Shown: positions 30,939 to 37,697 of the stretch, in pieces
Position numbering within the stretch: position 1 is the stretch's first letter
Layout: each line of letters opens with the position of its first letter
Assembly: GCA_039545315.1 (NCBI GenBank)
Contig: BCIM01000003.1
Location: 921,799-985,798 of the forward strand
From: Kondoa malvinella
Taxonomy: Eukaryota > Basidiomycota > Agaricostilbomycetes > Agaricostilbales > Kondoaceae
Length of the DNA: 64,000 bases
Reading direction: 5' to 3'
Notes under the pieces: generated by a model
Database searches by the model: none
What the model was told of the DNA's origin: nothing
Seen by the model: the letters and a program-made list of their open reading frames with translations, nothing else
Program-made: the position numbers and the translations under genes

Positions 30939-33900
30939 ATGCGCATAACCACCTTAATAGCTCTAGCGAGCTTCGGCCTAGCTCGAGCTGCACCTGGCGC
31001 AGACACGGACGATTCTGGCAAGCTTGATCAAACTTTAGTTGGGCAAGATACTTCCATCGTTCCAAATGCTTGGATCGTTCAATTGGATGCCACTGAAGAT
31101 CTAGCTCGTCTAGGCAGGCGAGCGCTGTGGTCCAGACGTAAAGGCGATGGCCTTGATGTGTGTCTGCCTGTTCGATTCGTCGGACATGCCCTGAAACCCT
31201 CGAACACAGGGATGCAAGAAGCTCTTCTCAAGTTTGGATCAGAAGAAGGTCAAATACGACCTGAGGCATCAATTCGATGAGAAGCCTGATATCTTCTATG
31301 GCGCTTCCATCGATGTGTCCGATAGCGCCGAAGTCGAGGCGATCCGAAAGATGCCTAACGTCATGGTCGGCCTTTCTGCGTTCGCGTGTTGCGCCAAAGA
31401 CTCATTGCATACGCAGAATGTCTGGCCTGTTCACAAATTCATACATCCTAATTACAAGCCAGAAGCGCAACACCCGAAGCGAGACTTTGTTGAAAAGCGT
31501 GCTGTTGCATCCGACATCTATCGTATGTACGAATGATAGTCTCTTACAGCTTGCCTGACGCAAATTTCCAATAGCTCCTCACGAACAGCTAGGTATCAAC
31601 AGATTGCAGTCCCAAGGCTTGACAGGCAAGGGCGTCAAGGTCGGTATCCTGGACTATGGCGTAGACTACCTTCATCCAGCTCTTGGTGGCTGTTTCGGCC
31701 CAGGCTGCAAGATTGCTTTCGGTATGCACCAGTGCTTCACTATAGAATCTGCTGATCAATGATTCAGGCTATGACGTTCTCAGAAACTGTGGGTGCTATA
31801 GAAGACGAAGACCGCGTGAAGCTGACGAATGCAAATCTATAGCTGCTGATCCCTACGACGATTGCGCTGCTGCCGCGCATGGAACCTCTGTGACCGGCCT
31901 CATCGGTGCCAATCGCAATGAGACAGGATTCCTGGGCGTTGCTCCGGATGTAAGTGTCTCGTCAGTCTGTAGTCGCCAAAGCTAACAAGATATTAGTCCA
32001 CTCTCGGTGGTAAACACATCCTTGCGTGCTCAGAGACGGCAGCTCACTTTGATATAGTTTACAGAGTCTTTGGCTGCCAGGGCGAATCGACAACAGATGC
32101 TCTCATACAAGGCTTACTCCGAGCAGCTCAAGACGGTGTAGATGTTATCAACCTCTCTGGTGGATCTGCCGGAACCTGGACTTCAGATGCAGTTGCCGTG
32201 GTTGCGGACAATGTAGTAAAGCAAGGAATTACTGTAGTCGTGAGTCAATGTCTTTGTCGTCCTGGCTCTCTTACTCAAGATTTCTAAAGGTAGCTGCAGG
32301 AAACTTTGGCAACCAAGGTTAGAACGGCAAGTCAGACAGCCTGCTCTTTACTGATCTGTCATTCATAGGCCAATTCTACACGGATCAGCCAGCGAGTGGA
32401 AAGAACGTTCTGTCCGTCGGTAGCTCTGCGCCTCGGTAAGCTCTCTTCTCGCTGTAGAACACATTGACTGACGGGCGCCTAGAAAATTCACCCAATTCAC
32501 TGCTACCATCACCAACAACGGAAGGGAGCTCGTAAGCGCCCATCTAGTCTGTCCGAGTTTTCGAGGCTGACTTCGCCCAGCGATACTATGGCTCCCATGC
32601 TTTTGTCCCACGCCAACTTAGCCTCTACGTCTTGACAAAAGATACGACACAAGTAGCAGATGGTTGCGCTGCTCTTCCGGCATCGACTCCAGATCTTAGC
32701 GGCAACGTTGTTCTCATTCGCAGAGTGCGTTCATTGGTAAGTACTTCGACAAGATACTTATTCCTATTTCAGGGTGGATGTGCTGTCATCGACAAGATCC
32801 TGAATGCGGCTGCCAAAGGAGTCAGTTGTCCGCTCTTGCATTGTACTAGGCTGATGCATCTTCATCATCAGGCAGCTGGCGTTCTCAGTGAGTCTGGATG
32901 ATAGTAAGCGAAGGAGTGACTGAACCTTGTCTAGTCTACAACCAGCCAGGCGATCCCGTCTTGTATGAAGACGGAGCTCTTTCTGGTTACCCCAGCGGCG
33001 ATGCAGGTCTGCTGTCTGCTGACGATGGTGAATATGTACGCATTTCTTGTCAAAATGTTTGGACAGGGCTGAAAATGTGACAGCTGGTCTACCGCGCTAA
33101 ACAGAATTGGGGAACAACAATCCAGTTCAACAATCCTTTAGTTGGCATTGCTAACCAGGAGAATCCTGGTCAAATCACGTATGTAGATCTTACCTCTGTT
33201 AAAATACCGCTCACGACTGGACAGCGAACTTCTCGGGGCGGCTTCGCCATATGGACCGACTTACGATATGTATCCAGTCCCCAAAGTTCTGGCTCCAGGT
33301 GGTGAGTAGATTCATAGCACGTCAGCCCGAGCTGACAGAACGTCCAGAAAATATCCTCTCCACATTCCCGCGAGTGTTTGGCTATTACTCCTACTTCTCG
33401 GGAAGCTCCTTTGCAACACCATTCGTCTCGGTTCGTCTGCAAGCAATTTGCTGGCTGTCCAGACTTTGACGATGCATGATAGGGAGCTGCCGCGCTTTAC
33501 ATTCAACAAGCAAGGATGATGGGCAAAGATGCCTCGCCGAAAGCTGTAATGCAAGCATTCACTACGACAGCAAGACCTGTCTCAGCAGGCAGAGGTCCCG
33601 TCACGGTATCTCGTCAAGGCGCTGGTATTTTGGACGCATTCACTGCGGTCACTGCTACAACTTCAGTGGACAACTCTTTCCTGCTGCTCAACGACACAAA
33701 CTACTTCCAGGGGAACCAGCAGATCACTCGTCAGTGTCGTCACTTGATCTCGTCTAGCTTCTGCTGAACCAAAGACTATAGTCCGCAATGACGGGAAAGA
33801 TGCTCGCACTTACAGCGTGCTGCACGTTCCAGCGATTACCAGCCTACCTTTCCAAGCTGTATGTTGAGCTCAGGGATTCAAACAATGGTCTAAACTTCTG

Positions 33901-34768
33901 TCTTCAGGGTATCTTCTACCCTTTGCTCAACCCAGACATGTCCGGTGCCGCTGCTCAAGTAGACATCTCCAACACCAATCTCAGCTTACAACCGGGCGCT
34001 TCAACCACTGTGTCAGTCCGCTTCACACCTCCCACTGGGCTCAACAAGACGACCTTCCCGATCTACTCAGGCTTCATCTACTTACTGTCGAACGATGCCA
34101 TTTTACTTAAAGTCCCTTATCTTGGCATGGCTGCTGCGATGCGCGACATGCAAGTCATCGATACCGGAGCTGTCATCGCTGGTGCGAAACTGCCTCTCAT
34201 TGCCGATGGCAACTTCAACATCCAGTCTGGCGAGAAGACGTATACATTCATGGGTGCAAGTGTACCGAACATCTTTCTGCGGCTTGTCGGTAGGTCTGAG
34301 AACACTGTGTGATGTCTCCCGCTGAAGAACGTTTCTAGCGGGCACACCTAGTCTGATACTGGATGTTCAAGCCGTGCCCGCAGCAGCACCAGGCAGCCGC
34401 AACGCTCCACCGCCATACACTGTTGGCACATTCGCGACTGCCAACTATGTCGCGAGAAATCCCTCTACGCAGCCAGCATCACCTTTCCAAGTCATAACAC
34501 AACAGATACCTTGGGACGGCACTGCCAACACAGCTACGGGAAGAGTGGTCCTGCCAAACGGCTCGTATCGATTGCGATTATTGTTAGTCTCGGCCATCTC
34601 ACACAACGCTCAGTCACTCATCTTGCCCATCTAGTGCTCTCAAGATTACAGGAAACCCAGACGTTCAGGCAGACTATGAGTGAGTTTCTCCCACGGAGGT
34701 GATTGGCCGACGATTGAGGAACATATCACAGATCATGGAGTTCGCCTTTAATCACCATCGCACGCTGA
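30939..34768 (+). CDS. Secreted subtilisin-like serine protease (peptidase S8, minor extracellular Vpr-type)
   Basis: A signal peptide (MRITTLIALASFGLARA) and an inhibitor-like propeptide are followed by the S8 domain. It starts LGINRLQSQGLTGKGVKVGILDYGVDYLHPAL, with Asp in DYG where DTG is usual. The other catalytic residues are His in AAAHGTSVTGLIG, oxyanion Asn in AAGNFGNQG, and Ser in SGSSFATPFVS. A PA-type insertion and a C-terminal Fn3-like region follow (SLQPGASTTVSVRFTPP). Two last introns restore ALKITGNPDVQADYE-SWSSPLITIAR, as in the family. More than ten introns. It is a probable extracellular or wall-associated endoprotease. It lies immediately upstream (767 bp) of the repeat-peptide precursor; any processing link is speculative. 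Confidence 0.88.
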
Positions 34769-35535
34769 CCTACTCCTTCGCTAATTCTACGTGGTGCTAC
34801 TCTTCGTTTTTACTGTACATGTTTGGTCTCTGATGATGCCTGGCGGGAGTTGGGGTAATAATAAGGTGCCTGAAGATCCGGGGGAGACGCGTTCTCTGAC
34901 GAGATGCAATCTCATGGCGATGGCTTGCGCATGCAAGAACTGCGCTCAACAGATGTGAATCAAATGGTTTGTACGAGATGATTGGATTGAAACAAAGTCC
35001 GAGATATTGTCATGCATGATTTCGATCTGTTCCTTCCCCTGCGCTGTAGTTCTCTTGTTGCGATCAGCCTTCACGAGCGACGATCAAAGACCACCGAGGC
35101 GCTCTTCAGCCTTGTGTGACGCCCCTTGGCGCTGAGACACATCTTTCAAGCGTCATACTTCGACGCGGCAGCAATCCTTGCCGCGTGTCTCTCGTCGACG
35201 CTCTTAGCGTTGTCTCCGATCTGCGCCTGTATACGTCTTTCTGCTTGCTTGCTGCTTCCTCTGCAGTGCTCACACACGTTCCAAAAAGGCCATCTTGACA
35301 CGAAAACGAAAAAAACCGTTCAGAACGTCAACTTTCGCGAACATCTTGTTTCTACCTTAGCGTGAACGCCTCATTGCACACGCCGAAAGACTATTTGAGT
35401 TCACCCGCTGTCTGCCGGACGCCCATTGAGCCTCGAGTACCCTTCGCTCGACGACGAATACTGCTTGTTCACCAATTGTCAACTTGCACACGACCTAACG
35501 AGCCACTCTTTTAACGACTTCGTATACGAATCATA
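34769..35535. promoter_or_regulatory. Upstream region of the repeat-peptide gene
   Basis: 767 bp between the subtilase stop and the precursor ATG. The last 150 bp are CT/CA-rich, as in strong fungal leaders. I found no exact copy of the Ustilago-type pheromone response element ACAAAGGGA. Small open frames here look random. Confidence 0.35.
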
Positions 35536-36545
35536 ATGAAGTTCTTCGCCATCTTCGCTGCTTTGGCCGTGGCCTCGGTCTCCGCCATGCCTGCTCCTAC
35601 CCAAGCACCAGCCGTATGTTTCTTACAGCATTGTCATCTAGCATCGATCTGATGTAAGCTGCAGGTTGAAGCTCGTCAATTCGGTGCTGAGACCACTGGC
35701 GCTGGACCCAATGGAGCTCGCCCATGGAGAGCATGGAAGAAGGATGTAAGTCTCGCCTCAGCCTGATCGAGCGCAAGCTCATTTTGAGCCAGGAGATTGA
35801 GGAGCGTCAATTTGGTGCTGAAACCACTGGTGCTGGACCAAACGGAGCTCGCCCATGGAGAGCCTGGAAGAAGGACGTGAGTCTCTATATAGCCGTNNTG
35901 CAAANNNNAGCTCNCTNTTGAGCCAGGAGATTGAGGAGCGTCAATTTGGTGCTGAAACTACTGGTGCTGGACCCAACGGAGCTCGCCCATGGAGAGCATG
36001 GAAGAAGGATGTAAGTTTGCACGGCCATCACCCGTAACCAAACTTACGATCAAACCAGGAGATCGAAGAGCGTCAATTCGGTGCTGAGACCACAGGCGCC
36101 GGACCCAACGGAGCTCGCCCATGGAGAGCCTGGAAGAAGGACGTAAGCGTCTCATTGGTCGTGATCCCAGACATAGACTTATTTTATCAACGAAACAGGA
36201 GATTGAGGGGCGTCAATTCGGTGCCGAAACCACTGGCGCTGGACCAAATGGGGCCCGTCCATGGAGAGCATGGAAGAAGGATGTAGGTCTTCACATAGTC
36301 GTGCTCCGAAACAAAATCTGACTGTTAATTCAGGAGATCGAAGAGCGCCAATTCGGTGCTGAAACCACTGGAGCTGGACCCAACGGAGCTCGCCCATGGA
36401 GAGCCTGGAAGAAGGATGTATGCCTCTCCTTAGCCATTATCGGGACACAGTCTCATTGACGAAACAGGAAATTGAAGAGCGTCAATTCGGTGCTGAAACC
36501 ACTGGAGCTGGGCCCAACGGAGCTCGCCCATGGAGAGCCTGGTGA
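35536..36545 (+). CDS. Secreted precursor with seven identical 20-residue peptides (Kex2-type repeat precursor)
   Basis: Eight exons encode 218 residues. Exon 1 (35536-35613) is a signal peptide (MKFFAIFAALAVASVSA) plus MPAPTQAPA. Exons 2-8 (35665-35745, 35793-35876, 35927-36010, 36059-36142, 36199-36282, 36334-36417, 36468-36545) each hold one copy of QFGAETTGAGPNGARPWRAW. Each copy is preceded by EAR, EER or EGR, and all but the last are followed by KKD. The stop codon follows directly after the last Trp, marking the probable mature C-terminus. All introns are phase 0, 47-56 nt. This layout (signal, spacer, basic sites, identical peptides) resembles alpha-factor and other Kex2-processed repeat precursors. 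The N-terminal Gln could cyclise to pyroglutamate. I do not recognise the peptide. Hormone, pheromone, antimicrobial or effector roles are all open. Confidence 0.85.
35665..36542 (+). repeat. Seven-unit exon-intron tandem repeat (period about 125-140 bp)
   Basis: Each unit is one 75-84-nt exon plus one 47-56-nt intron. Exons are near-identical in DNA, while introns are much more diverged. Introns 2 and 3 still share their 3' half (AGCTC..TTGAGCCAG), so these units duplicated most recently. Ambiguous bases (N) occur only in intron 3, at 35897-35917. Confidence 0.9.
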
Positions 36546-36803
36546 TTCAATCCGCCCTCGCAACGTGAGTAATGCATCACAAAGCTTCAAAATGGCGCGC
36601 TGAAACAACTTTAGGTCCGATCATCTGTTCCCTCGTTATTACATCGGTCCAAAGTTATGTGTAAGGCTGTATCACGGTGCAGGGATGTACATATGATACC
36701 GCTTGGCCAATACAGTCTTTCATTCGTATACGGACACATTATCCCTCTACTTCGTGACTCATGCGTTCACTTTTACCAAATCCCTAAATCGCCTTGTTGG
36801 CTA

Positions 36804-37697
36804 CTAGTTGTCACACCTAGAAGGCCTCCTACGATTGCAGAACCACGTGCGTACTTGCTTCTCGGTCTAGCGGAGACACATCAGCTACGAATCCCAGTGA
36901 TTTAGGAATTTCCAGCGACTTACCAAACCAGTAGCAGACGCGACTTCCGACACCTCGTCATACACAGGGTACTGCACTCTAGCCCACAGTTGCTCCAACC
37001 GCATGATCTGGAACGTCGAAAAGTTACTCCTTGATCTTCCTTGCCAAGGAGATCCCGAAACCCTTCGAGGTGATTGCTCGAATTGCTGCTCTGGTATTTC
37101 TGGTTCTTGATATATTCGAGGGATTGGGCTTTGAGCTGGAGAGCCATTCGAATTGAGCGAAGGTGGGTAAGAAGAATATGGTGAGGAAGGGTCATAGCTT
37201 GATCCTTGGTCGATACTGCCGCGGCTGCTAAAGTAGGAGCGACTTGTTGAAGCCGAGTACGCGGAAGGAGAAGGTGCAGGGTAGTTGTAGCTGAAGGAAG
37301 ATGAGCTGGAATATGAAGGCTTGCGAAGCATAGCGTTTTCTGGGTCTGTGATGGAAGTCGATCTGGGGAACAAGTTGTCTTGCATGCTGGATCTGGTCAC
37401 TGATTGACGCGGAGCTCTGTAGGATGTAGGAGACGCGTTTGAGGTGTCCAATTGAGTATCTGCTGTGCTCCATCTACGAGCTCGTGAAGGCGGTAGAAAT
37501 GCAGAGTCGCCAGTTGGGTAAGGCGAGAGTAAATGTGGAGAGGTCTCGCCTGGAAAGCTTTGGATAGGAGGTAGTAGCTGCTCTTGAACTTCACTTGGGT
37601 CGTAGTCGAGCAATGATAAGGAGCGAAGTGGAGGCAGTTGAGTGCGAGATCTTGTTCGATCTGAACCTTGAGGGCGAGCGGGAAATGTGTAATCCAT
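36804..37697 (-). CDS. Homeodomain transcription factor with C-terminal homeodomain
   Basis: Two exons (37697-36924 and 36866-36804) give 278 residues. The first ATG in frame is at 37697. The N-terminal 215 residues are Ser/Pro/Tyr-rich (SYSSSSSFSYNYPAPSPSAYSA) and likely disordered. The last 60 residues are a standard-length homeodomain. It has Arg5, Phe8, Leu16, Trp20, Leu40, and helix III WFCNRRR with Trp48, Phe49, Asn51 and Arg53 all present. Position 50, which sets base preference, is Cys. The intron falls between helices II and III (GL|TEKQVRTWF). The protein ends seven residues after helix III. It has no TALE three-residue insertion, so it is unlike HD1 mating-type proteins. It is convergent with the repeat-peptide gene, 258 bp away. 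Confidence 0.85.

What the first reader, a model, noticed from the sequence alone, without database searches (positions are those of the whole stretch)
35536..36545. Secreted precursor with seven identical copies of a 20-residue peptide
Seen: a signal peptide, then seven copies of QFGAETTGAGPNGARPWRAW. Copies are preceded by EAR, EER or EGR and, except the last, followed by KKD. The final copy stops right after Trp, as the terminal copy of alpha-factor-type precursors does, which fixes the likely mature C-terminus. Known: fungal Kex2-processed repeat precursors yield pheromones, cyclic peptides or wall peptides. Inference: cleavage after Arg and trimming of KKD would free a 20-mer, possibly with pyroglutamate at its N-terminus. 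I recognise no known peptide. Basidiomycete pheromones are normally short farnesylated CaaX peptides, so this would be a different secreted signal or effector.
Basis: partly seen in the sequence, partly recalled or inferred. Interest (0 to 1): 0.92.

Follow-up and report, generated by a model that had tools for sequence, protein, structure and literature searches.

The report
Seven-copy Qsp1-like secreted peptide precursor
A fungal gene built from repeated one-peptide exons encodes seven identical copies of a 20-residue secreted peptide that resembles the Cryptococcus quorum-sensing peptide Qsp1, and it lies beside a secreted protease gene that could process it.

Summary
Eight phase-0 exons (35536-36545, +) join into 218 residues: a signal peptide by eye, then seven identical copies of QFGAETTGAGPNGARPWRAW. 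Among the copies all 15 minimal substitutions are synonymous, dS about 0.59, so selection keeps the 20-mer. The single-copy C. deuterogattii precursor aligns through leader, FGA and P-GA-PW; 1-3 of 20,000 shuffles do as well. The upstream neighbour (30939-34683, +) encodes a secreted S8/PA/fn3_5 subtilase, the only fn3_5 match found in this genome; Qsp1 is matured by Pqp1, classed as the same broad type. Best reading: a multi-copy Qsp1-like autoregulatory peptide, cut at KK by kexin and after E-x-R by the neighbour. Orthology is not shown: the peptide is short, the genome is not close to Cryptococcus (IMPDH 72%), the subtilase is unplaced in a tree, no OPT gene is adjacent. It also meets the definition of a KK-type Kex2-processed repeat protein.

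The parts
35536..35613 (+). exon 1: signal peptide and start of the leader (MKFFAIFAALAVASVSAMPAPTQAPA)
   Evidence: signal peptide judged by eye, no predictor run
35665..35745 (+). exon 2: VEAR + 20-mer copy 1 + KKD
35793..35876 (+). exon 3: EIEER + copy 2 + KKD
35927..36010 (+). exon 4: EIEER + copy 3 + KKD
36059..36142 (+). exon 5: EIEER + copy 4 + KKD
36199..36282 (+). exon 6: EIEGR + copy 5 + KKD
36334..36417 (+). exon 7: EIEER + copy 6 + KKD
36468..36545 (+). exon 8: EIEER + copy 7, ends at Trp, TGA
   Evidence: the acceptor is chosen by homology to the other copies (alternative)
30939..34683 (+). neighbouring gene: secreted subtilase with S8, PA and fn3_5 domains (pyrolisin/Vpr type); about 20 exons, 909 aa in my last model; Asp, His and Ser motifs present; candidate maturation protease
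   Evidence: domains and relatives from an earlier 910-aa model that ended at 34634; homology pieces; last exon and tree; the only fn3_5 match found in the genome. Exon model approximate
34684..35535 (+). 852 bp between the protease stop and the precursor start, presumed promoter
   Evidence: coordinates; promoter role not tested

Best explanation
The gene encodes a secreted polyprotein of seven identical Qsp1-like signalling peptides. Shown: eight phase-0 exons, the inner 84-nt exons each one module (EIEER, 20-mer, KKD); a conserved 20-mer; resemblance to the Cryptococcus Qsp1 precursor; an adjacent gene for a secreted pyrolisin-type subtilase. Inferred: signal peptidase removes the first 17 or so residues. 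Kexin cuts after KK and a carboxypeptidase trims the lysines, releasing seven proforms (acidic leader DEIEER plus a 20-mer ending in Trp), each equivalent to one proQsp1. The neighbouring subtilase, like Pqp1, then cuts between E-x-R and Q outside the cell, freeing QFGAETTGAGPNGARPWRAW, perhaps with pyroglutamate; cutting also at PWR/AW with trimming of Arg would leave a 17-mer ending in PW, as Qsp1 does. The peptide accumulates with cell density and is read by the same species, possibly after import by an OPT transporter. Seven copies raise the dose per transcript; skipping an 84-nt exon would change the copy number without loss of frame.
For: Anatomy. Selection: 15 of 15 minimal substitutions in the cores are synonymous, crude P about 1e-9, dS about 0.59; in the linkers one of six variable positions changes the protein, E to G. 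Qsp1 likeness: C. deuterogattii precursor P0121 (BLASTP 12 of 29 residues, pairwise E 0.001). With signal peptides left out, 3, 1 and 2 of 20,000 shuffles reach the score at three gap costs; 0 of 14,890 33-residue windows of 120 (mutually related) subtilases and 0 of 8,004 six-frame windows of this window reach it (one gap cost). Eight of 11 Qsp1 residues match with one 6-residue gap (at the strictest gap cost only PGGAYPW/PNGARPW aligns, 5 of 7), among them the Gly that is Ala in the inactive control peptide. In both precursors the peptide ends the protein at Trp. Protease: S8 + PA + fn3_5, the single fn3_5 match found in the genome, in the gene just upstream; Pqp1 is a cell-associated serine protease of the S8 type and CNAG_00150 was classed as a pyrolisin. 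Other machinery is present: a kexin (C2), OPT matches at two loci, WOPR matches at two loci.
Against: The peptide alone is short: 57-152 of 20,000 shuffles match as well, and I chose Qsp1 from recall, so a look-elsewhere penalty applies. P0121 finds nothing in this genome at E up to 10, not even this gene, so the likeness is below the sensitivity of that search. The genome is not close to Cryptococcus: over 252 residues IMPDH is 72% identical to 4AF0 (organism recalled) and 69% to 6RPU. The subtilase is a long unplaced branch in a tree of 42 rows, outside the Tremellomycete clade. CNAG_00150 was put in a clade apart from other basidiomycete pyrolisins, and the same paper also states that no human or animal pathogen has pyrolisins, which does not fit that placement. 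In C. neoformans QSP1 lies next to OPT1; here no OPT match lies on this contig. A KEP survey reports a repeat-precursor type in Cryptococcus and Talaromyces whose sequence I could not see. There is no expression, peptide or receptor evidence.
Confidence: 0.55

Rival explanations
1. A Kex2-processed repeat protein (KEP) whose peptide is unrelated to Qsp1: a hormone or mating-like peptide of unknown role. The Qsp1 likeness is convergence of a Gly/Ala/Pro-rich peptide ending in Trp.
For: It meets the survey definition: signal peptide, at least 3 repeats of at least 8 residues between KR, KK, RK or RR. KEPs were found in 1,345 of 1,461 strains, and 2,560 of 7,878 had no homologs. A basidiomycete KEP peptide that starts with Gln and ends in Trp is reported from Trichosporon oleaginosus.
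Against: Leader and peptide together resemble the Qsp1 precursor beyond shuffles and natural windows. The neighbouring protease is of the broad type that matures Qsp1. There is no Ste13 XA/XP spacer.
Confidence: 0.3
2. A cyclic ribosomal peptide (dikaritin type) made from the repeats, with the neighbouring protease as a cluster enzyme.
For: Proteases were reported near such precursor genes (passage).
Against: No UstYa (DUF3328) match in the genome (nothing rang in the control genomes either, so weak). The core has no Tyr, which is called mandatory for cyclization in ustiloxins, phomopsin and asperipin.
Confidence: 0.05
3. A structural surface peptide (like repellent Rep1 of Ustilago) or a host-directed effector rather than a signal.
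For: Several secreted copies, as in Rep1, which lacks a Ste13 signature.
Against: The unit is Gly-rich and identical in all copies under selection; I would expect a surface coat to tolerate variation (inference). The likeness to Qsp1 favours signalling.
Confidence: 0.08
4. Not a protein-coding gene: a tandem DNA repeat that happens to be open.
For: No transcript data.
Against: Only synonymous changes in the cores; seven GT..AG introns that keep the frame, 6 of 7 with an in-frame stop.
Confidence: 0.02

Closest known systems
Qsp1 (CQS1, CNAG_03012) of Cryptococcus neoformans / gattii
   Same: Signal peptide, short Pro/Ala leader, [N/Q]FGA...P-GA-PW peptide, protein ending at Trp; a pyrolisin-type subtilase is in the picture; OPT and WOPR genes are present in the genome.
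   Different: Seven copies, not one (P0121 is 45 aa); a 20-mer, not an 11-mer; E-x-R before the peptide instead of KPQ; KK between copies; protease gene adjacent instead of OPT1.
Kex2-processed repeat proteins (KEPs)
   Same: Signal peptide and identical repeats between dibasic sites.
   Different: Only KK, used to a lesser extent than KR or RR; a monobasic cut needed at the N-side; one repeat per exon; no Ste13 signature.
Ascomycete alpha-pheromone precursors
   Same: Multi-copy; the last copy ends without a trailer.
   Different: No KR, no XA/XP spacer, no Cys.
Vpr/pyrolisin-type subtilases of fungi
   Same: S8 + PA + fn3_5 with catalytic motifs.
   Different: At most 39% identity among the 120 of 499 hits listed; long unplaced branch.

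Membership tests
Qsp1 peptide family | secreted precursor with signal peptide | tested here: met
   MKFFAIFAALAVASVSA by eye; no predictor run
Qsp1 peptide family | peptide NFGAPGGAYPW or a clear homolog | tested here: inconclusive
   8 of 11 residues with one gap; precursor tails 1-3 of 20,000 shuffles, peptide alone 57-152; P0121 does not find this gene in the genome search
Qsp1 peptide family | peptide ends the protein at Trp | tested here: met
   last copy ends RAW-stop; P0121 ends PW
Qsp1 peptide family | single copy per precursor (in the one homolog seen) | tested here: not met
   seven copies
Qsp1 peptide family | maturation by the Pqp1 protease | not testable with these tools
   a subtilase of the same broad type is adjacent; orthology to CNAG_00150 not shown
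Qsp1 peptide family | gene next to OPT1, as in C. neoformans | tested here: not met
   OPT matches lie on contigs C5 and C8, not C3
Qsp1 peptide family | import by Opt1 and action inside the cell | not testable with these tools
   two OPT loci exist; function unknown
KEP | signal peptide and at least 3 repeats of at least 8 aa between KR/KK/RK/RR | tested here: met
   six KK sites, seven repeats; definition
KEP | cleavage by Kex2 | not testable with these tools
   a kexin gene exists (C2:630546); no cleavage data
Ascomycete alpha-pheromone | KR followed by XA/XP repeats | tested here: not met
   spacer is KK-DEIEER
Dikaritin RiPP | Tyr in the core peptide | tested here: not met
   no Tyr in the 20-mer
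Dikaritin RiPP | UstYa/DUF3328 gene | tested here: inconclusive
   no match in the genome, but nothing rang in the control genomes either

The most novel reading that the evidence does not exclude
Import-based quorum signalling by Qsp1-type peptides is not private to Cryptococcus. A distant basidiomycete uses a seven-copy, one-peptide-per-exon precursor with its maturation protease encoded next door, so that the peptide and its processing enzyme form a two-gene signalling cassette.
Probability: 0.35. Interest if true: 0.85.

Novelty: new variant of a known kind. Interest (0 to 1): 0.66.

Why it matters
In the passages I read, Qsp1 is described only in Cryptococcus. A multi-copy relative beside a candidate processing enzyme in another lineage would give a natural variant for asking which residues matter, where the cuts fall and how old the system is. 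The selection result alone makes the 20-mer a strong target for peptidomics in a yeast-sized basidiomycete genome, where few secreted peptide signals are characterised.

Tried and rejected
Protein database search with the 218-aa precursor: none at E <= 1 among the 7,997 candidates that were scored. Pfam: a DUF7406 match below its cut-off (E 0.0011) and a weak one in the signal peptide (E 0.047); DUF7406 gives nothing in this genome, rejected as composition. Viral contigs: 23 pattern matches, none a relative. Rfam on the window: none at the gathering score. Placing the organism: the subtilase tree (41 of the 120 listed hits, of 499 found, plus the window) left it unplaced; IMPDH shows only that it is not close to Cryptococcus; the 5.8S-ITS2 looks basidiomycete to me (recalled). 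A GH32 search meant to test for Phaffia gave nothing useful. Introns 2-7: in 15 pairs identity 0.55-0.71 against shuffled means of 0.62-0.71, so no signal under a permissive alignment, although TRF aligns the units with introns included. An actin-like ORF against the PDB was uninformative for taxonomy.

Full report
What is there. At 35536-36545 on the + strand eight exons, all multiples of three and all in phase 0, are separated by seven GT..AG introns of 47-56 nt. Joined, they give 218 residues: MKFFAIFAALAVASVSA (signal peptide by eye), MPAPTQAPAVEAR, then seven identical 20-mers QFGAETTGAGPNGARPWRAW. The five inner exons of 84 nt each encode EIEER (once EIEGR), one 20-mer and KKD; exon 2 has VEAR instead; the last exon stops after Trp. 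Two cautions: there is no transcript evidence, and a crude gene finder of mine slightly preferred another acceptor for the last exon (39.7 against 38.6), which homology to the other six copies overrules.

It is under selection. The seven 60-nt cores differ at 14 columns, all third codon positions; the minimum of 15 substitutions are all synonymous, where a quarter of random changes would be (crude P about 9e-10, assuming independent changes), and the mean synonymous distance is about 0.59. The copies are therefore old, not a fresh amplification, and all 20 residues have been kept. In the linkers one of six variable positions changes the protein (E to G). The introns cannot be told from shuffles under a permissive alignment (15 pairs), although Tandem Repeats Finder aligns whole units of about 134 nt.

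What it resembles. The unit recalls the Cryptococcus quorum-sensing peptide Qsp1, NFGAPGGAYPW (sequence seen in passages of PMC9426920 and PMC5959073). A probe carrying that peptide brought up P0121 of Cryptococcus deuterogattii, 45 residues, MSFTTLFTAALVLVAPALVAAAPAAAPEPSVKPQNFGAPGGAYPW. Finding it was by construction; the test is how our precursor compares with it. BLASTP aligns 12 of 29 residues, pairwise E 0.001. With both signal peptides removed the local score is reached by 3, 1 and 2 of 20,000 shuffles at three gap costs; the 11-mer against the 20-mer alone is reached by 57 to 152 of 20,000. Among real sequences, 0 of 14,890 windows of 33 residues from 120 mutually related subtilases and 0 of 8,004 six-frame windows of this window reach it (one gap cost). 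Eight of 11 Qsp1 residues match with one gap of six; at the strictest gap cost only PGGAYPW/PNGARPW aligns. The Gly that is changed to Ala in the inactive control peptide NFGAPGAAYPW is kept. Against this, P0121 finds nothing in this genome at E up to 10, not even this gene, and I picked Qsp1 from memory, so the likeness is suggestive and not proof of common descent.

The neighbour. Just upstream, 30939-34683 on the same strand, lies a gene for a secreted subtilase: S8 (E 2.5e-29), fn3_5 (1.3e-15) and PA (1.8e-12) domains (earlier 910-residue model), with Asp, His and Ser motifs. My last model has 20 exons and 909 residues and is approximate; its last exon was placed by homology. The genome shows at least five S8 loci: by eye a kexin on C2 (VDDGLD, HGTRCAGE, HGGTSAAA), two proteinase-K-like genes, one that looks like tripeptidyl peptidase II, and this one. 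fn3_5 was matched only here (only one candidate was scored). Five loci in 19.09 Mb put one within 5 kb of a given point about 0.3% of the time, the single fn3_5 one about 0.05% (my arithmetic, after the fact). [quoted passage not shown] Pqp1 is CNAG_00150, an S8 subtilisin-like peptidase (passage of PMC10040410), and CNAG_00150 was classed as a pyrolisin (passages of PMC5371821), a class that usually has an Fn3-like domain.

Limits on orthology. CNAG_00150 fell in clade sf3, apart from the basidiomycete clade sf2; the same paper also says that no human or animal pathogen has pyrolisins, which does not fit. The window's subtilase finds relatives at 29-39% identity in Tulasnella, Kwoniella, Naematelia and many other fungi (120 of 499 hits listed), but in a tree of 42 rows it is a long unplaced branch outside the well-supported Tremellomycete clade. 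In C. [quoted passage not shown] that CNAG_03012 is QSP1 is recalled. Here the OPT matches are on C5 and C8. IMPDH, over 252 residues, is 72% identical to PDB 4AF0, which I recall to be C. neoformans, and 69% to 6RPU; those two are 70% identical to each other. So the fungus is not close to Cryptococcus. Its class is unsettled; the ribosomal DNA looks basidiomycete to me, from memory.

How it most likely works. Shown: the modular gene, the selection, the resemblance and the neighbour. Inferred: signal peptidase cleavage; kexin at KK and trimming of the lysines, giving seven proforms with an acidic DEIEER leader (the first with its own leader), each equivalent to one proQsp1; a second cut after E-x-R by the adjacent subtilase outside the cell; perhaps cyclization of the N-terminal Gln; then sensing by the same species, possibly after OPT-mediated import. 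An alternative second cut at PWR/AW would leave a 17-mer ending in PW. Seven copies per transcript raise the dose, and skipping an 84-nt exon would change the number of copies without loss of frame.

Compared with what is known. By the published criteria (at least three repeats of at least eight residues between KR, KK, RK or RR; PMC7329392) this is also a Kex2-processed repeat protein, with KK, the site used to a lesser extent (PMC6339444). That survey found a mean of 1.00 such proteins per Tremellomycete strain and none in 46 strains of that class; it also lists a type shared by Cryptococcus and Talaromyces whose sequence I could not see. Our gene lacks the Ste13 spacer of alpha-pheromones and the Tyr of dikaritins; no UstYa gene was found, though the control was silent too. 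I hold it to work like Qsp1 (0.55) without claiming membership: single copy and linkage to OPT1 are not met, and homology is inconclusive. Nothing like this gene turned up in my ten paper searches of an open-licence library, of which I saw listings and, for 15 papers, passages found by search terms; the key Qsp1 papers (Homer 2016, Tian 2018, Lee 2007) are not held, so what they say about homologs is unknown to me.

Noticed in passing
window 36739-37697 (-): Converging gene downstream of the precursor: Ser/Pro-rich protein with a partial homeodomain (E 0.0007, 19.8 bits, below the Pfam cut-off of 22.9). Whether it belongs to a mating locus was not tested.
   Followed up: partly
P0053 and P0066, residues about 490-537: The Cryptococcus Qsp1 precursor tail VKPQNFGAPGGAYPW resembles a stretch of two pyrolisin-type subtilases (VKPQFGAPGGSILSTYP), the best-scoring natural windows. 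Chance, or a hint that the peptide mimics part of such a protease.
   Followed up: no
window 35897-35917: All 8 N of the window lie in intron 3 of the precursor gene, perhaps ambiguous bases or an assembly trouble in the repeat.
   Followed up: no
L054 (G000:C4:513-667): 5.8S rDNA at a contig end, with 18S sequence that by eye seems to break off about 430 bases from its 3' end into unrelated sequence.
   Followed up: no
window 30939-34683: The subtilase gene has about 20 exons in 3.7 kb in my model, a very high intron density.
   Followed up: partly
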